DNA from: Candidatus Saccharimonadota bacterium
GTDB taxonomy: Bacteria; Patescibacteriota; Saccharimonadia; Saccharimonadales; Saccharimonadaceae
NCBI GenBank assembly: GCA_017455145.1
Contig: JAFTBP010000002.1
Location: forward strand, 1-64,000
Direction: 5' to 3'
Length of the DNA: 64,000 nt
Shown here: positions 7,482-37,894 of the stretch, in pieces
How the letters are laid out: every line of letters begins with the position of its first letter
Numbering within the stretch: the stretch's first letter is position 1
Notes under the pieces: generated by a model
What the model saw: only the letters and a program-made list of their open reading frames with translations
What the model was told of the DNA's origin: nothing
The model's database searches: none
Position numbers and translations under genes: made by a program

Positions 7482-7510
7482 AAAAGCATAAACCTTATTT
7501 GGGAGATTTT

Positions 7511-8341
7511 ATGAAAACAGGGAAAAAATACGGTTTTAAATATAACTTTTACAAATATCGCCGTATTTTTAGTGCCAAAAAGGCCAGACTTTATAAGAAA
7601 TATGATACTTCTTATAATACCTCTTTTGACCGCTCCAAGCTTAGTAGTAACGCCGGTTTCTATACTGTCTTTAACGCAGTAAAGTCTCACATGACTAGCC
7701 ACCCAATTTATCATTATTCTGGCGTTGTTGCCGGGTCGTTTATCTTGGGCCTTCTTATTGGCAAGCTTGCTACCCCTGTTTCTCAATCCCAGGCTCTTGC
7801 TACTATTTCTGCCGATACTAACGCCGTTTCTACCTCTGTTATAGAATCCGTTTCTGCCCCAGAAAAAGTCAACATCAGCGAACTTGGTGCCTCTACTACC
7901 GTTTCTACCACTAAATCTACCTCTACTGTCACCCAAAAACCTGTTGAGGTTAAACACAACCAACTCTATATCCCAAAGCTTGGCATTGACACCAATATCG
8001 TCCCGGTCGGCATAGTTGGTAAAACTATCCCAGTCCCTTCTAACCAAATCGGTATTAACGGTACTCTTCTAGTTGGCCACAACCCTGGCGTATTCTCTAG
8101 TATTCTTAACCTCCGTGCCGGTGATACTATTACTCTTTATGGCACCACTTATCAGGTCTATTCTGCTAGCGACTATAAGCTAAAAAGCACTAGCTGGCTT
8201 ACCGGCGCTCTTGGTAACTTTGCCGTTGACAACCTCAACGCTCGTGCCGGAGAAATCGTTCTTATGACTTGTACCGGTTCTTATGATCCAGCCCTAGAGT
8301 CTATGTCTCACCGTCGCCTTGTCTTTGCTCGCGCCATCTAA
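7511..8341 (+). CDS. sortase (class E/F-like), membrane anchored
   Basis: Transpeptidase that joins surface proteins to the envelope or to one another. The 276-aa protein has a basic N-terminus, one membrane segment (about 72-90), a Ser/Thr-rich linker, and a C-terminal sortase beta-barrel. Catalytic candidates: His in VGHNPG (about 190), Cys in MTCTGS (about 254) and Arg in SHRRLV. ATG 7511 is preceded by GGGAG at 7501-7505; a TTG at 7499 is possible but lies before that SD. A second sortase follows 55 nt downstream. A likely substrate in this window is the fibro-slime protein ending near VPDTG (20730-22466); that link is inference. Confidence 0.88.
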   Translation: MKTGKKYGFKYNFYKYRRIFSAKKARLYKKYDTSYNTSFDRSKLSSNAGFYTVFNAVKSHMTSHPIYHYSGVVAGSFILGLLIGKLATPVSQSQALATISADTNAVSTSVIESVSAPEKVNISELGASTTVSTTKSTSTVTQKPVEVKHNQLYIPKLGIDTNIVPVGIVGKTIPVPSNQIGINGTLLVGHNPGVFSSILNLRAGDTITLYGTTYQVYSASDYKLKSTSWLTGALGNFAVDNLNARAGEIVLMTCTGSYDPALESMSHRRLVFARAI

Positions 8342-8396: not shown

Positions 8397-8936
8397 ATGG
8401 GAAGTGTCATATATAGACCACGTTTTTCTGGCGCACGTAAGATTTATCTTGCAATTTTTGCAACTTACTTTCTTTCTGCTATTGCTTTTGTCGTTATCGG
8501 ACTCCAGCCCGTTAGAGAAAATACAGGGGTAGCCTATGCTACCGAAGCTAGCTCCGCTTCTGGCTTACTTACCATAGACAGTATAGATTTAGATGCCCCG
8601 GTTAAGCCGGTCGCGCTTAACGGCAGAGAACTAGAAGTCCCAGACCAGATTGTCGGCTCCTATTCCGCGCATAGCAATAAGACTCTCCTTATCGGTCATT
8701 CCTCTACTATTTTCACCCGCCTAAAGGACGTCAAATTAGGCGACAAAATAACCTATAGTGGCAAATCTTATACCATTACCAATATAGAAGAAAAGCAAAA
8801 ACAAGATATAATAATGTCTGACGTTCTAAAAGAAGAGTCTGTTGATACCCTGGTCCTCATGACCTGCTCCGGCGACGCTATCCCCGGCACCTCCGGCGAC
8901 CACACCCACCGCCTTCTCGTCACCGCAAGGTATTGA
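8397..8936 (+). CDS. sortase, second copy
   Basis: 179-aa sortase with one N-terminal membrane helix (about 16-37) and a catalytic barrel. His101 (IGHSST), Cys157 (MTCSGD) and Arg172 (THRLLV) are the expected catalytic triad. It is much shorter than the preceding sortase because it lacks the long Ser/Thr linker. A TG-extended TATAAT (8381-8386) lies 10 nt before the ATG, so it has its own near-leaderless transcript. A decayed fragment closely matching its last 16 codons lies at 10017-10067. Confidence 0.9.
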   Translation: MGSVIYRPRFSGARKIYLAIFATYFLSAIAFVVIGLQPVRENTGVAYATEASSASGLLTIDSIDLDAPVKPVALNGRELEVPDQIVGSYSAHSNKTLLIGHSSTIFTRLKDVKLGDKITYSGKSYTITNIEEKQKQDIIMSDVLKEESVDTLVLMTCSGDAIPGTSGDHTHRLLVTARY

Positions 8937-8967: not shown

Positions 8968-9019
8968 ATATTCGGGAATACCCGCGTCCCCCTTTCATCT
9001 GAAAGGGGCATATTTTATT
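8968..9019 (+). ncRNA. candidate very short RNA between promoter and hairpin
   Basis: The RNA expected from the promoter at 8933-8961 would hold CGGG-AATA-CCCG (8973-8984) and then the hairpin CCCCTTT-CATCT-GAAAGGGG (about 8989-9008), followed by a T-rich tail. It would be about 50 nt long and reads into the 3' end of the opposing toxin gene. Expression is not shown; it could be a leftover promoter. Confidence 0.4.
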
Positions 9020-9470
9020 TATACAATCTTAAAAATGCCCTTTTGACAATCTCTAAATCCGTTTTTGGTATTTGGCCAATTTTATTATATAATCTTGACG
9101 CGCTCATAACTCTTGCTTGACAAATCGCCGCATACTGAGATTTATTTAAGAAAACGAACTTTGCATACCACGTTCCACTTTTTTCTTGAGACGTCAAAGG
9201 TATACCCATGAACCCCTCTTCACTTAACTTTTTCATTACTAATACAGGGCGAGAGAAACGGCCGCTCTTGCCATTGATTTCTATCCCAACATTCTCCCCA
9301 CACCCACACCACCAAATATCACCTTCTGATATTCTAGGGGCTGATTTCCCATAGTGAATTTTCTCTTTTATTCTAATCCACTCATCAAACCGCTTGATCT
9401 GCCATTCTTCAATACCAGTATCAAAATTAATTAATATTAAAACGCCGATTTTCTTTACAAGTTTTCGCAT
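9015..9470 (-). CDS. PemK/MazF-like toxin
   Basis: 151-aa protein. The core GDIWWCGCGENVGIEI, then FSRPVLVMKKL and GFMGIPLTS, follows the PemK/MazF endoribonuclease fold; the C-terminus holds the SRLYNKIG block. About 45 N-terminal residues precede the core, more than in classical MazF. ATG 9470 follows GAGGAG; a GTG at 9476 is too close to that SD. The promoter is a TG-extended TATAAT at 9536-9541 on the minus strand. No antitoxin gene is visible on either side, so it may be an orphan, may act on host RNA, or may be controlled by RNA; none of these is proven. Confidence 0.78.
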   Translation of the reverse strand: MRKLVKKIGVLILINFDTGIEEWQIKRFDEWIRIKEKIHYGKSAPRISEGDIWWCGCGENVGIEINGKSGRFSRPVLVMKKLSEEGFMGIPLTSQEKSGTWYAKFVFLNKSQYAAICQARVMSASRLYNKIGQIPKTDLEIVKRAFLRLYK

Positions 9471-9545
9471 ATTCACTCCTCTTTCAACTTATTAATCCAA
9501 TCGCTTGGAAGTAGGAGCAAACGTGGATGATGTATATTATATCAC

Positions 9546-9670: not shown

Positions 9671-9734
9671 CAAAAACGTGATTTTTCCCACGATTTTGCA
9701 TACAAAAACGTGATTTTTCCCACGATTTTGCATA
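9671..9734. repeat. 32-bp direct repeat, two tandem copies
   Basis: Two identical 32-bp units, 9671-9702 and 9703-9734, each containing CGTG-N8-CACG. They lie exactly at the 5' break of the DUF4143 fragment, so they may mark the junction of the event that truncated that gene. Confidence 0.8.
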
Positions 9735-9736
9735 AT

Positions 9737-9979
9737 TTTACGGATTTAGTTGCCGAAGAAGATCTTCTGGGCATGTTTAAGGGAGCATTTGCTGAACAGC
9801 TGATATTCCAAGAAATGAACGCTACGCTCCTTAACGGGAAAATTTACTATTATTCTAGGGACGATTCTAGGGGTGAAATTGATTTTATGATACAAGGCCA
9901 CCTCGGCAAAGCCATTCCAATAGAGGCCAAATCTGGAAAAAATCGTAAACGCCCCATTGTATTTGGCTGGTGCGGTTGA
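9737..9979 (+). pseudogene. C-terminal fragment of a DUF4143 ATPase
   Basis: The translation after the tandem repeat (LLGMFKGAFAEQ, IYYYSRDDSRGEIDFM, IPIEAKSG) matches the C-terminal DUF4143 nuclease-like region of AAA ATPases of the archaeal-ATPase type. The whole ATPase half (Walker A and B) is missing and the frame ends abnormally shortly after the EAKSG block. It is a remnant and unlikely to be functional. Confidence 0.75.
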
Positions 9980-10369: not shown

Positions 10370-10592
10370 GTTCGTCCTAGCTGGCAACCGGAACGGCGGC
10401 AGTACCAACAATCAAGGTACGAACGGCAACTATTGGTCGCGTACCGCCAACAATAATAGCAACGCGTACAACCTGAACCTGAACAGTTCAAATAGCACGG
10501 TCAACCCCGCGAACAACAACAACAAGTACAACGGGTTCTCAGTCCGTTGCATAGCAGAGCAGTAGTCCTAGTTTGCCCTGCCCCAGACTCCT
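10370..10592 (+). repeat. DGR template repeat (TR)
   Basis: 223 bp that align without gaps to the 3' end of the target gene (VR, 12688-12910, opposite strand). Within the coding part there are 20 differences, all at TR adenines: 11 A-to-T and 9 A-to-G. They change 18 Asn codons (AAC/AAT) and make one silent change. One more A-to-C lies past the stop (10587). The last part of the repeat, from the GGGTTCTCAG block to GCCCCAG, is identical in both and would hold the initiation-of-mutagenic-homing site. The A-rich sense is on the plus strand, so the template RNA must be transcribed rightward, against the RT gene. A chance ORF (10341-10565) here is only the template read in the target frame. Confidence 0.97.
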
Positions 10593-10600
10593 TTACTCAG

Positions 10601-10680
10601 CCCGACGCCAAAACCGAAAGCCCGACGCCAAAACCGAAAGCCCGACGCCAAAACCGAAAGCCCGACACCAAAACAAAACC
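10601..10680. repeat. 20-bp tandem repeat, four copies
   Basis: CCCGACGCCAAAACCGAAAG occurs three times exactly (10601-10660) and once degenerate (10661-10680). It fills the gap between the TR and the stop codon of the reverse transcriptase. A role in ending or structuring the template RNA is possible but unproven. Confidence 0.9.
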
Positions 10681-11838
10681 CTAATAGTCCCACCCCATCC
10701 TATCAAACACCCTTTTTGCCAGTGCCTTAGAACTAAAATGCGTACTATGCCCCAAGTACGATACCACGGAATCTATCTCACGTTGCCCCATACCCACTTC
10801 TGCCGCCGCTTGGTAAAAATTCCGCTTAAATCTTTTTCCCATCACAACATGATACGGATATATCACCACGCCCAAAAACTCCACACCTTTTTGTACTTCC
10901 TGAATATAGTACTTTTTTGGATGCAACGTAAGGTCGATACCGTAAAGAAACTCCCTAATTTTTGTGATATCCTTTTTCGCTTGAGGAAATTCCTCCTCCG
11001 TCACTACAATATAAAAATCATCCACGTATCGCCCATAATGTTTATAACCCAGCCCATATTGCACAAATTTATCTAGCTGGTTTAAATAAATATTGGACAA
11101 AAGCTGCGAGGACAAATTCCCAATCACAATCCCTTTGCCGGGCGGCTGGCAAAACAGACTTTTATTTTTTGGTAATCTGTCCCACCTAGACAGTGGAGGC
11201 CGTCGTTTTACCCCTTTTACCGGATCATCAAAAATAATTTTCTCCCAGATATAAGTTATTAAGCCCCCAAGGTCCGGCCGATCCTTAAACTGCTCTTTTG
11301 CGCCCTCTCTTACCAAGTCATACAACGCTTTTCTTGGTAAACTCATAAAATAACCCTGGATGTCTAATTTTATTACGTACGCCCTTCTTGTATAGTTCCT
11401 AGAAACGCTGGCAATATGATGTTGCAAACGTTTTATTCCAAGCAAAGTACCTTTACCTTTTCTGCAAGAATAAGAATCGTAAATAAATTTTCTATCCCAC
11501 CACTCTGCCACCATGTTATACAAAAAGTGGTGCACCACCCTGTCCCTAAACGGTGCCGCAAAAATCTCCCTAAGGACGGGCTTAGTCGTTACAAATGCTA
11601 TACCACGACTAGGCGTATATCTTTTATGCAAAATGTCATCCCGAAGCGTCACCAAATTCTCCAAAAGATACGCCTCAAACCTATATTCGTCGCGCGACCT
11701 GCGCTTGCCTTTTCTGGCGTCCAAATACGCTATTTCTAGTTGATGCAGCAGCCACTCCGAAAAATCATAATCAGACGGTGGCAAATCATCTGGCAGTTTT
11801 ATTTCTGTGCTTTTCGTAGTCTTTACTTGCTTTTTCAT
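10681..11838 (-). CDS. DGR reverse transcriptase
   Basis: 385-aa group II intron-like RT without maturase or endonuclease domain, as in DGRs. Motifs: KLDIQGYF with catalytic Asp159, IGNLSSQ (239-245), YVDDF (271-275) with the catalytic Asp pair, and GVEFLG (318-323). The IGxxxSQ form of motif 4 replaces the QG of other RTs and is typical of DGR enzymes, which misincorporate opposite template adenines. The start codon lies 53 nt inside the Avd-like gene, so translation is coupled. It would copy the TR at 10370-10592 and seed the VR at 12688-12910. Gene order on this strand is target, accessory protein, RT. Confidence 0.95.
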   Translation of the reverse strand: MKKQVKTTKSTEIKLPDDLPPSDYDFSEWLLHQLEIAYLDARKGKRRSRDEYRFEAYLLENLVTLRDDILHKRYTPSRGIAFVTTKPVLREIFAAPFRDRVVHHFLYNMVAEWWDRKFIYDSYSCRKGKGTLLGIKRLQHHIASVSRNYTRRAYVIKLDIQGYFMSLPRKALYDLVREGAKEQFKDRPDLGGLITYIWEKIIFDDPVKGVKRRPPLSRWDRLPKNKSLFCQPPGKGIVIGNLSSQLLSNIYLNQLDKFVQYGLGYKHYGRYVDDFYIVVTEEEFPQAKKDITKIREFLYGIDLTLHPKKYYIQEVQKGVEFLGVVIYPYHVVMGKRFKRNFYQAAAEVGMGQREIDSVVSYLGHSTHFSSKALAKRVFDRMGWDY

Positions 11839-12625
11839 AATCTTGCTCTACTTTTAGTAATGCGTCATTTAATCGTATTAACACCTTATGATCTATTAGC
11901 CTAAACGTCGCAAGTAGCGAAATATTAGCTAGAAGCTCCGATACTTGCCTACTTAACGCACTAAACACCTCTGGCCACTCTATGTGGCCTCTTTCCGCCA
12001 TAATCAGCTGCATCGCCATCGTTTTTGATATTTCTAGCATTCTTTGACCAAAAAACTCTCTATCCGTCCGTTCCATTTTTCTGGCCACAAAATAAATCAG
12101 CTTGGCCGCTTCTTGTACATCCACGCCCAAGTTTGGAAAGACGGCTTTGGGAGTAATAATTGTATTTGCTTTGTTCCAAAGCTCTTCTTCATCGTGCCGA
12201 ATTTTCCAAAACTCATCTTTTGTCATCTCTCGGTCTAATTTATAGGCCACCACGTTTTCTCCGCCCACTCCGCTCACGCGAACCTTTTTGGCTCCCGTAG
12301 TCAAAATAATTCTCTCTGGAGTTTCTAGATTCCGAAAATTAATCACCCCAATCGGCGCCTTATACCGAAAATCCGAATCCGCCGTCAATTTTGGCGCTCG
12401 TTTTACCATTTCCAGCCTATCTCTAGCTATCGGCCAAACATAGTAGAGATATATCAGAGCAGAATGCGCCATCATCTTGTACCAGTCGTTTTGCGTTTTT
12501 AACAAAAACACATGACCATAATTTTCTTTTTCTAGTTCTAATAGCTTCTGTTTGGTCTTTTCGTACATACTCTTGCGCAAAGCGCCAGCTCTTCTTCTTG
12601 CTGTGAGTTCTTCTGCCGTAGTCAT
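11786..12625 (-). CDS. Avd-like DGR accessory protein
   Basis: 279-aa, mostly helical protein between target and RT. In DGRs the accessory variability determinant (Avd) is a small four-helix-bundle protein that binds RT and template RNA. The C-terminal half (about 190-270) has long amphipathic helices, e.g. SRQVSELLANISLLATFRL and LNDALLKVEQDYEKA, resembling the S23/Avd bundle. The protein is about twice the usual length, with an N-terminal basic helix (ARRRAGALRKS) and a middle region with beta character. ATG 12625 follows GAGGAGG at good spacing. Assignment rests on position, size of helices and operon; the family match is inferred. Confidence 0.75.
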   Translation of the reverse strand: MTTAEELTARRRAGALRKSMYEKTKQKLLELEKENYGHVFLLKTQNDWYKMMAHSALIYLYYVWPIARDRLEMVKRAPKLTADSDFRYKAPIGVINFRNLETPERIILTTGAKKVRVSGVGGENVVAYKLDREMTKDEFWKIRHDEEELWNKANTIITPKAVFPNLGVDVQEAAKLIYFVARKMERTDREFFGQRMLEISKTMAMQLIMAERGHIEWPEVFSALSRQVSELLANISLLATFRLIDHKVLIRLNDALLKVEQDYEKASKDYEKHRNKTAR

Positions 12626-12648
12626 ATCATCCTCCTCATTATCAAATT

Positions 12649-12680
12649 GTTAACTCCTCGCCCCGAGGCGAGGAGTTAAC
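12649..12680. promoter_or_regulatory. DGR hairpin next to the variable repeat
   Basis: Perfect 14-bp inverted repeat (12649-12662 and 12667-12680) with a 4-nt loop, 7 nt beyond the 3' end of VR. DGRs such as that of phage BPP-1 need a hairpin or cruciform just after the mutagenic-homing site for efficient target recognition. There is no T-run, so a simple terminator is less likely. Confidence 0.85.
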
Positions 12681-12687
12681 GCTCTCC

Positions 12688-12910
12688 AGGAGGCTGGGGC
12701 AGGGCAAACTAGGACTACTGCTCTGCTATGCAACGGACTGAGAACCCGTAGTACTTGTAGTAGCCGCTCGCGGGGTAGACCGTGCTATTCGAACTGCTCA
12801 GGTACAGGTCGTACGCGTAGCTACTACTGTAGGCGGTACGCGACCAATAGTAGCCGTACGTACCTTGATTGTAGGTACTGCCGCCGTACCGGTCGCCAGC
12901 TAGGACGAAC
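12688..12910 (-). repeat. DGR variable repeat (VR)
   Basis: Counterpart of the TR. It covers the last 65 or so codons of the target gene plus about 27 nt past the stop. Variable residues run from Asp519 to Tyr567 of the target; each changed codon is AAC or AAT in the TR and Tyr, Ser, Asp or Gly here. Flanking positions without TR adenine are identical. Confidence 0.97.
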
Positions 12911-14448
12911 TTAGGACCGCTAGTATTAGTTACCATGTTAGCATAAGAATTGTAAGCATTGTATAAGTATTGGAAATCGCCAGAGGAACCACCTTTTGGC
13001 AATACCCAACCCTTAGGGCAGATGGAGCCGGAGGCATCAACATTAGCGCCAGTGCTACGTGTACCAGTGCCAGCCGTTGCGGCATACCAGTTGTAGAGAA
13101 CGCCATAGGTAGAGCCAGTATTTATGACCATGGATTGGTTATCGCAGGCATCACTGTCGCTGGTGCACCAGGTACCGGTGTTGCTGGCGGTGAGGGTGAA
13201 GCCAGAAGCTGGATGATCAGTATCTGAACTGGTTGGAGTAAAGGAGCCAACAAGAGCAAGGTTATCTACCATCCAACAAGCACCATAGGTAGAAGTGCCA
13301 TTGTTCATGTTTAACTTCTTTACGGTATAGCTCTTATATGGCGTACTGCCACGATCGTCAATTAGCGCCTTGCTTGTACCTATCGCAGTATTAGCACAAA
13401 TGTCCGCAGTCATCTCGCGCATATACGTAATCCCCGTAATATCGCTGACCTTGTATTCAAACGCCACAGTATAGTTCTTTTCGTACTTCGGTACATCTAC
13501 ATATACCTCATAATTTCCGGCAGCTTTGGCCGGCGTAGTACAAGTGTACGTTAGCGGAGCATAAGACGTCCTATTACACGTCATTTGTGTACTTACGTTG
13601 CCTTGTCTCATATAGATATTCGCATCTATCGCGCTCGTCGTAAACAGCGTAGTCTCTATCGTAATGGTTTCTCCGCCATCCGGCTTGCCCGTGGCCGGAG
13701 ATACGCTCGCGCTTGGCGTTGTTGCTGCATCCGCTACGGCCGTCCAGAGTACAGAATTAGTATAAGTTCCTACCGTCGCCGTGTCACTCTTGGCTTTTAG
13801 CCCATAATACACCTGGAATTCATCTGTCGTAGTGTTTGGCGTAGAGGTCGCGTTAATAAGTGTGGCTGGATTAGTCCCGCTGGCCGGTATCCCCGCAAAC
13901 TGCGAGACAGAATACCCGTTCTCAAACGCTACATAACTCGCGTCAAAGTGGTTGGTTTCGCTGATTTGTCCGCTCGGAATGGCAAACCCCCATTCTCCGC
14001 TGTTTAACTCTGCCGGGCTAGCCAGCGTTCCCGTCGTTGACGCAATCGTCGCCGACCCGCCAGATAACTTTAGCGCGTTGCTCGTGTCGTTCATGCTAAC
14101 ATATAGTTTATAGCCATTAGGTGCCGTAGTGCTGGCGGTTACATCGGTTTCTGCCACGGTCATCATATCAGTTTCATCTACCACGCTTAGATTGAGGTCT
14201 ATACTAGGCGCCGCTGAGAGGCTGAGGGAATACCCCTTTGCGGTTGAGTCTTCCGAGGTGTTTACCGCACTAGATTCCTGTATCGGCGCTAGAATCGATG
14301 ACGCCAAAAACGCCCCCAAAAAGGCCAGGGAAAACACACCAAGACCGGTGGAAAGTATCCTCCATCTGACATTTGACCTCTGCATGCCAAGCTGTTTCCA
14401 CTTGCGCTTTAATGCTTTTTTACCATCCCCCGACCTCCGGTAAAACAT
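12715..14448 (-). CDS. DGR target: membrane-anchored surface protein with FISUMP/C-type-lectin-like variable domain
   Basis: 577-aa protein diversified by the retroelement. Order: basic cytoplasmic tail (1-28), one membrane helix (about 31-54) that would place the rest outside, a Ser/Thr-rich beta region (about 60-245), an IPT/TIG-like domain with two Cys (about 250-340), and a C-terminal FISUMP (Fibrobacter major domain) region starting near ITYMREM and ending in the VR. GACWMVDNLAL and GFSVRCIAEQ mark the domain, which belongs to the C-type-lectin-like folds used by DGRs. AGGAGGT stands 8 nt before the ATG, and the promoter lies at 14520-14549. A ligand-binding role at the cell surface is inferred. 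Confidence 0.93.
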   Translation of the reverse strand: MFYRRSGDGKKALKRKWKQLGMQRSNVRWRILSTGLGVFSLAFLGAFLASSILAPIQESSAVNTSEDSTAKGYSLSLSAAPSIDLNLSVVDETDMMTVAETDVTASTTAPNGYKLYVSMNDTSNALKLSGGSATIASTTGTLASPAELNSGEWGFAIPSGQISETNHFDASYVAFENGYSVSQFAGIPASGTNPATLINATSTPNTTTDEFQVYYGLKAKSDTATVGTYTNSVLWTAVADAATTPSASVSPATGKPDGGETITIETTLFTTSAIDANIYMRQGNVSTQMTCNRTSYAPLTYTCTTPAKAAGNYEVYVDVPKYEKNYTVAFEYKVSDITGITYMREMTADICANTAIGTSKALIDDRGSTPYKSYTVKKLNMNNGTSTYGACWMVDNLALVGSFTPTSSDTDHPASGFTLTASNTGTWCTSDSDACDNQSMVINTGSTYGVLYNWYAATAGTGTRSTGANVDASGSICPKGWVLPKGGSSGDFQYLYNAYNSYANMVTNTSGPKFVLAGDRYGGSTYNQGTYGYYWSRTAYSSSYAYDLYLSSSNSTVYPASGYYKYYGFSVRCIAEQ

Positions 14449-37528: not shown

Positions 37529-37795
37529 GATTCCTTAATAACTTCTTCCGGCGACCAAGGCTCCACCCGCGTCAATGATATACTACATCAATTCCCATTC
37601 TCACTGCCGTATTCAGGCGGCGTGAACAGAGAATCTGGCGCTACCGTCCTTCAGGGTACGCTCGGCGGCTGGTGGTCTGCTGGATCTAACTTTAATACCA
37701 CCGCCCGCCACCTGCGCATCTACGGTAATTATACCTACCCGGAGTACGACTACTATAAGACCAACGGCTTTTCTGTCCGCTGCGTCGCCCAGTAG
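37529..37795 (+). pseudogene. orphan C-terminal fragment of a DGR-target-like (FISUMP/C-type-lectin) protein
   Basis: Open frame after a stop at 37526-37528 and ending at TAG 37793-37795, with no start. The translation contains LQGTLGGWWSAGSNF and ends DYYKTNGFSVRCVAQ, the same domain end as the DGR target (GFSVRCIAEQ). The first 200 or more residues, the membrane anchor and promoter are missing. Near CAGGGTACG the DNA resembles TR 10410-10440, with 6 of 7 mismatches at TR adenines. It probably derives from a second variable gene. Confidence 0.68.
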
Positions 37796-37894
37796 CATAC
37801 CACATTAGCATCCTAAGAAATTCACACCTCCTTTTAAAAGAGACGGTACAAAGTGCCGTTGTAAATATTACAACAATTTTAGCCATAAAAACTA

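What the first reader, a model, noticed from the sequence alone, without database searches (positions are those of the whole stretch)
10370..14448. Complete diversity-generating retroelement with 20/20 adenine-specific differences
Seen: TR (10370-10592) and VR (12688-12910) align over 223 bp without gaps; 20 differences lie in the coding part, all at TR adenines (11 A-to-T, 9 A-to-G), changing 18 Asn codons and making one silent change. RT with IGNLSSQ and YVDDF, an Avd-like gene, a hairpin and a surface target gene are all present. Known: such A-specific mutagenic homing defines DGRs, and CPR genomes are rich in them. Inference: the element is intact and has acted recently.
Basis: partly seen in the sequence, partly recalled or inferred. 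Interest (0 to 1): 0.95.

Follow-up and report, generated by a model that had tools for sequence, protein, structure and literature searches.

The report
Self-mutating surface gene, flipped template
This is a real gene-diversifying element in an ultra-small gut bacterium: a reverse transcriptase copies a template and rewrites the end of a surface-protein gene only at template adenines; the kind is known, but here the template is flipped in almost every member of the bacterium's group, and related genomes hold dozens of stray copies of rewritten segments.

Summary
Confirmed. TR 10370-10592 (+) and VR 12688-12910 (-) align over 223 columns without gaps; all 21 differences lie at TR adenines (P = 8.5e-13). 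Twenty are mutagenic (11 A>T, 9 A>G; 18 Asn codons, one silent change). The 21st (A>C, after the stop codon) recurs as a fixed TR/VR difference in the nearest relative and looks like an IMH*/IMH mark. RT, accessory gene, FISUMP target and a 14-bp hairpin are intact. The host belongs to Nanosyncoccus-like Saccharibacteria. Additions: (1) The TR is flipped relative to RT, accessory gene, VR and target, 3' of the RT. This holds in 57 of 58 Saccharibacteria loci; 68 of 69 virus-contig relatives have the TR on the RT strand. (2) The "Avd-like" protein has two domains: an Avd-fold bundle (Z 14) behind an N-terminal domain, perhaps like MutS domain I (inconclusive). (3) The genome holds a second such DGR and 16 copies of VR2-type segments, mostly outside complete genes, one in this window (37532-37815) at a site empty in relatives. 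One related species has about 90. Recent copies vary chiefly at TR adenines, and some distant copies share one allele: possibly an archive of DGR variants.

The parts
10370..10592 (+). template repeat (TR1), opposite strand to all other parts
   Evidence: 223-column gapless match to VR1, 21 differences, all at TR adenines
10599..10674 (+). 3.8 tandem copies of a 20-bp unit (AGCCCGACGCCAAAACCGAA) between TR end and RT stop; not seen after the TR of L063
   Evidence: Tandem Repeats Finder; L063 comparison
10681..11838 (-). reverse transcriptase, 385 aa, IGNLSSQ and YVDDF
   Evidence: Pfam RVT_1 E 3.6e-12; phrog_1423 RT E 3.1e-83; best solved relative of the family profile is the Bordetella phage DGR RT 8ub7 E 1e-36
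11786..12625 (-). accessory protein, 279 aa: N-terminal alpha/beta domain plus C-terminal Avd-fold four-helix bundle; overlaps RT start
   Evidence: model pLDDT 94; residues about 160-277 match Avd 4dwl/8ub8 at Z 14
12649..12680 (-). hairpin after VR, 14-bp perfect stem, 4-nt loop; L063 has a hairpin of the same size with different stem sequence
12688..12714 (-). non-coding 3' end of VR after the stop codon, holding the putative IMH; fixed A (TR) versus C (VR) difference at TR 10587 / VR 12693
12688..12910 (-). variable repeat (VR1): last 65 codons of the target and 27 nt beyond
12715..14448 (-). target gene, 577 aa: hydrophobic N-terminal segment (read from sequence), IPT/TIG domain, C-terminal FISUMP (Fib_succ_major) domain holding VR1
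   Evidence: Pfam TIG E 3.5e-8, Fib_succ_major E 8.9e-11; NCBIfam TIGR02145 E 1.4e-11
37532..37815 (+). gene-less VR2-type cassette belonging to the second DGR of this genome (G000 C10:85160-87502), in an intergenic stretch upstream of an anaerobic ribonucleotide reductase-like gene
   Evidence: 91% match to another cassette; 16 of its 19 differences from TR2 at TR adenines; insertion absent at the matching site of relatives

Best explanation
A complete, recently active diversity-generating retroelement. The flipped TR would be transcribed on its own from the + strand; RT plus the Avd-fold accessory protein would reverse-transcribe the TR RNA, misincorporating at adenines; the cDNA would replace the VR at the 3' end of the FISUMP surface-protein gene next to the hairpin, changing mainly Asn (AAY) codons in the exposed end of the protein while the TR stays unchanged. 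Shown: all the parts, the adenine-only differences, the change of VR at A sites between species, and the same layout across the clade. Inferred: transcription of the TR, cDNA synthesis, homing and surface exposure.
For: 21 of 21 differences at TR adenines, P 8.5e-13. Intact RT, accessory, target and hairpin. VR1 and VR63 differ at 21/56 shared-A sites against 2/119 shared non-A sites. In 36 loci of the genus 774 of 2182 TR adenines are changed in the VR against 59 of 5992 other bases (loci were chosen by A bias, so this describes and does not test). Family profile's best solved match is a DGR RT, E 1e-36.
Against: No expression, read-level or strain data. No strong promoter-like or structured-RNA signal found for the TR. 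The hairpin loop (TCGG on the coding strand) does not fit the GRNA loop described for phage DGRs (PMC3240598).
Confidence: 0.94

Rival explanations
1. A decayed or frozen DGR: built by past mutagenesis, no longer homing.
For: Only one genome of this species was at hand; a single snapshot cannot show present activity.
Against: All reading frames are open and both RT motifs intact. No non-adenine difference has built up between TR and VR. The two nearest species differ at A sites of the VR.
Confidence: 0.05
2. The match is an ordinary inverted duplication of the target's 3' end that diverged by point mutation.
For: The TR is a copy of the target's 3' end on the other strand.
Against: 21 of 21 differences at A, P 8.5e-13; a DGR-type RT lies between the copies; the same pattern recurs in dozens of related loci.
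Confidence: 0.01
3. For the dispersed VR2-type cassettes: they are decaying fragments of former target genes, or a MITE/REP-like non-autonomous repeat derived from a VR, with no role in diversification.
For: Sharp unit borders and tail-to-tail pairs in G013; many copies are old, with changes spread over all bases. A cassette next to the TR of DGR2 is also present in L166, as a remnant of a second target gene would be.
Against: Recent copies differ from the local TR almost only at adenines, and some distant copies share one diversified allele: variants are copied among loci rather than merely decaying.
Confidence: 0.5

Closest known systems
Bordetella phage BPP-1 DGR (bRT, Avd, TR, VR, IMH, hairpin)
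   Same: RT family (family profile best solved match 8ub7, E 1e-36), Avd-fold accessory (Z 14), adenine-only TR/VR differences, VR at the 3' end of the target, hairpin a few bases past the VR.
   Different: TR on the opposite strand and 3' of the RT; accessory has an extra N-terminal domain; hairpin has a 14-bp stem and a loop outside the GRNA pattern of phage DGRs; target has a FISUMP domain.
'Inverted' DGRs of Shewanella, Vibrio and Photobacterium (DiGReF, PMC3521204)
   Same: RT and TR on opposite strands.
   Different: There TR, VR and target lie together on one strand and only the RT is flipped; here the TR alone is flipped in the main layout. That paper wrote that TR and VR on opposite strands might theoretically be possible, and noted two distant VRs of that kind in Pseudogulbenkiania.
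DGRs of Patescibacteria/CPR (clade 2 of PMC8144416)
   Same: Cellular DGRs of the same superphylum.
   Different: The text of that paper does not mention TR orientation (word search); its CPR targets mostly lacked recognisable domains, whereas this target has TIG and FISUMP domains. Placement of this RT in that clade was not tested.
vls silent-cassette system of Lyme Borrelia (as an analogy for the dispersed cassettes only)
   Same: Many start-less copies of the variable segment of a surface gene, with constant borders.
   Different: Here the variation is at TR adenines, made by a DGR; transfer of a cassette into an expressed gene has not been shown.

Membership tests
Diversity-generating retroelement | TR/VR pair with differences confined to TR adenines | tested here: met
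   21 of 21 at A, P 8.5e-13
Diversity-generating retroelement | RT of the DGR group (YxDD, and IGxxxSQ in motif 4; the motif rule is from own knowledge) | tested here: met
   IGNLSSQ and YVDDF; phrog_1423 E 3.1e-83; profile best solved match is DGR RT 8ub7 E 1e-36
Diversity-generating retroelement | Avd-type accessory protein | tested here: met
   residues about 160-277 match Avd 4dwl (Z 14.1) and 8ub8 (Z 14.3), rmsd 2.0-2.1 over about 110 residues; unrelated bundles start at Z 12. NCBIfam Avd model matches 3 of 24 family members, best E 0.0047. Fold, not function
Diversity-generating retroelement | VR at the 3' end of a target gene whose variable end has a C-type lectin or similar fold | tested here: inconclusive
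   VR is the 3' end and holds a FISUMP domain; the fold was not predicted
Diversity-generating retroelement | IMH at the VR end followed by a hairpin/cruciform | tested here: met
   fixed A/C difference shared with L063; 14-bp perfect hairpin 7 nt past the VR. The match is by position; IMH function not tested
Diversity-generating retroelement | mutagenic retrohoming in cells | not testable with these tools
   needs an experiment or read data
BPP-1-type cassette order (a layout, not the family) | TR on the RT strand, 5' of the RT | tested here: not met
   TR on the + strand, 3' of a minus-strand RT; 57 of 58 Saccharibacteria loci with a detected TR have it opposite
MutS domain I (N-terminal part of the accessory protein) | sequence or fold match to MutS_I | tested here: inconclusive
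   Pfam MutS_I E 0.035 in 1 of 24 members; VIA rows mostly MutS at Z 3.5-5.1 but KCTD and GFRP domains tie at 4-4.6; no MutS in a profile search of PDB sequences
vls-like silent-cassette system (dispersed cassettes) | cassettes lack a gene start and have constant borders | tested here: met
   short open frames in G000, G008, G011 and G013; constant borders
vls-like silent-cassette system (dispersed cassettes) | one-way gene conversion from cassette into an expressed gene | tested here: inconclusive
   allele sharing between copies shows copying, but neither direction nor an expressed recipient is shown

The most novel reading that the evidence does not exclude
In Nanosyncoccus-like Saccharibacteria, DGRs feed a genome-wide archive: VR segments rewritten by the DGR are copied, with constant borders and without a gene start, into intergenic sites (16 VR2-type copies in this incomplete genome, about 90 VR-type matches in G013), and alleles are exchanged among copies and perhaps into expressed surface genes. 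This would join DGR mutagenesis to vls-like cassette switching. DGR1 itself has no such copies in the assembled part of the genome.
Probability: 0.35. Interest if true: 0.85.

Novelty: new variant of a known kind. Interest (0 to 1): 0.6.

Why it matters
DGRs are the one known bacterial system that rewrites chosen codons on purpose. A TR that is flipped in one whole clade shows that template and RT need not share a transcript in any member of it, and gives a natural test of how the TR RNA is made and recognised. A two-domain accessory protein in hosts in which no MutS above cut-off was found (0 of 40 genomes) raises a testable question on how the rewritten heteroduplex is handled. If the dispersed cassettes are an archive, a small-genome episymbiont would keep a memory of variants made by mutagenesis, which the literature held here does not describe.

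Tried and rejected
VR1 end sequence in viral contigs: no match; RT relatives in viral contigs and phage records are only 34-44% and at most about 37% identical, so nothing points to a phage origin of this copy. TR RNA structure: folds no better than shuffles (z +0.78). Promoter scan: 9 found against 7.6 +/- 2.9 expected, uninformative. Rfam: only tRNAs. Accessory protein in Pfam: no family for the window member. The N-terminal domain as MutS_I: left open, see Membership tests; the strongest sequence rows in PDB were not MutS. DGR1-type gene-less cassettes: TR1 finds only VR1 and distant target ends in the own genome; three of those lie at or near contig ends or belong to other target genes. 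Direct insertion of TR cDNA as the source of cassettes: disfavoured, since their 5' part comes from the target gene and is absent from the TR. Wu et al. 2018 (NAR) and Paul et al. 2017, which I recall as describing further accessory genes and CPR layouts, could not be checked: the first is not held, the second was not looked up by id.

Full report
Observation. TR 10370-10592 (+) and VR 12688-12910 (-) match over 223 columns without gaps; all 21 differences are at TR adenines: 11 A>T, 9 A>G, 1 A>C. With 67 adenines among 223 bases the chance of this is 8.5e-13. The 20 coding differences change 18 Asn codons and make one silent change. The A>C difference lies after the stop codon and recurs between TR and VR of the nearest relative, L063, so it is a fixed mark of the two ends (IMH* and IMH by position).

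Parts. RT 10681-11838 (-) is RVT_1 and phrog_1423 (E 3e-83); a profile of ten relatives has the Bordetella phage DGR RT as its best solved match (E 1e-36). The accessory gene 11786-12625 (-) has no Pfam family. Its model (pLDDT 94) has a C-terminal four-helix bundle that matches Avd (4dwl, 8ub8) at Z 14 with rmsd 2.0-2.1 over about 110 residues; two other S23-like bundles score 15-17 and unrelated bundles begin at 12. The N-terminal domain, modelled alone, has no significant Foldseek match. In the second look MutS domain I fills most rows at Z 3.5-5.1, tied with KCTD and GFRP domains; Pfam MutS_I reaches E 0.035 in one of 24 members. This stays a lead. No MutS_I match over the cut-off was found in 40 genomes of the order, while 11 of 14 control genomes have one. 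The target 12715-14448 (-) has TIG and FISUMP domains. A perfect 14-bp hairpin lies 7 nt past the VR; the one in L063 has the same size and a different stem sequence.

Host and activity. Loci of the same RT family come from Saccharibacteria of ruminant guts, among them Ca. Nanosyncoccus alces. In L063 (RT 84-85% identical; water deer ileum) the TR keeps most adenines while the VR differs: 21 of 56 sites where both TRs have A, 2 of 119 where both share another base, P 3e-10. This is what continued adenine mutagenesis predicts. Present activity was not testable.

Flipped template. TR/VR pairs were sought in the RT neighbourhoods by an adenine-biased match (at least 75 or 80% of differences at A). 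Of 58 Saccharibacteria loci from named genomes with a pair, 57 have the TR on the strand opposite to the RT, 56 of them 3' of it; of 69 viral-contig relatives with a pair, 68 have it on the RT strand. L103 to L182 include loci already seen, and some genomes give two loci, so the counts are of loci and not of independent events. The RT tree separates the two groups with full support (32 and 25 rows, drawn at the midpoint), which fits one change of layout. Published 'inverted' DGRs flip the RT against TR and VR together (PMC3521204), and one survey lists 122 layouts including inversions (PMC6642488). So a layout of this kind may be listed somewhere; its conservation across a clade was not found in the held literature.

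Second DGR and cassettes. The same contig holds a second DGR with the same layout (G000 C10:85160-87502). Sixteen further copies of its VR-type segment lie in the 395-kb assembly (62% complete). One is the VR of a complete target gene (C3:71748-73739), one is cut by a contig end, and the others have only short open frames. For 15 of 16 the share of changed sites is higher at TR2 adenines than elsewhere at P < 0.05, one-sided and uncorrected; the clearest are C10:84360 (17 of 18 differences at A) and the copy in this window (16 of 19). The window copy is missing at the matching site upstream of the ribonucleotide reductase-like gene in relatives; L284, L285, L286 and L288 match on both sides of the site, L287 and L289 only on one. 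VR-domain matches in G008, G011 and G013 (29, 29 and 90) are nearly all in short frames; other species hold mostly complete genes. In G013 the units I read have constant borders, with a 5' part from the target gene that the TR lacks. Twelve recent G013 copies differ from the local TR at 258 of 612 A and 76 of 1514 other sites, seven G011 copies at 193 of 395 and 45 of 1014; copies were chosen by identity to the TR. Two G013 copies on different contigs agree at 36 of 37 variable A sites (P 1e-6 among 78 pairs), so alleles are copied as DNA. In L166 the orthologous DGR2 has a complete target gene and a cassette next to the TR, so at least that cassette is older than the species split and may be a remnant of a second target.

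Verdict. DGR1 is a genuine and ordinary DGR in its mechanism, with an unusual layout that marks its clade. The cassettes concern DGR2 and its relatives, not DGR1; an archive role is a hypothesis with copying shown and function not shown.

Noticed in passing
window 37532-37815 (+): Gene-less VR2-type cassette inserted upstream of an anaerobic ribonucleotide reductase-like gene; the site is empty in relatives that match on both sides.
   Followed up: yes
L004 5160-7502 (G000 C10:85160-87502): Second DGR with flipped TR; its RT is 52% identical to RT1; the contig ends inside its VR.
   Followed up: yes
L183-L192 (G013): About 90 short VR-type units in one related genome, many as tail-to-tail inverted pairs with sharp borders; how they spread is unknown.
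   Followed up: partly
L070, L071, L076, L079, L081 (accessory genes): Accessory proteins of several related DGRs start with what reads like a helix-turn-helix (Xre-type) segment; read by eye, not tested.
   Followed up: no
40 Saccharibacteria genomes: No MutS_I match over the family cut-off, although 11 of 14 control genomes have one; mismatch repair may be missing in hosts rich in DGRs.
   Followed up: partly
window 9671-9734: Two perfect 32-bp direct copies (CAAAAACGTGATTTTTCCCACGATTTTGCATA), followed at 9710-9979 by a short frame that reads like a gene remnant.
   Followed up: no
window 7499-8341 and 8397-8936 (+): Two sortase-domain genes side by side, upstream of the DGR.
   Followed up: no
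window 9015-9476 (-): PemK/MazF-like gene near the DGR; a similar frame lies near the second DGR (L004 3759-4148), read by eye.
   Followed up: no
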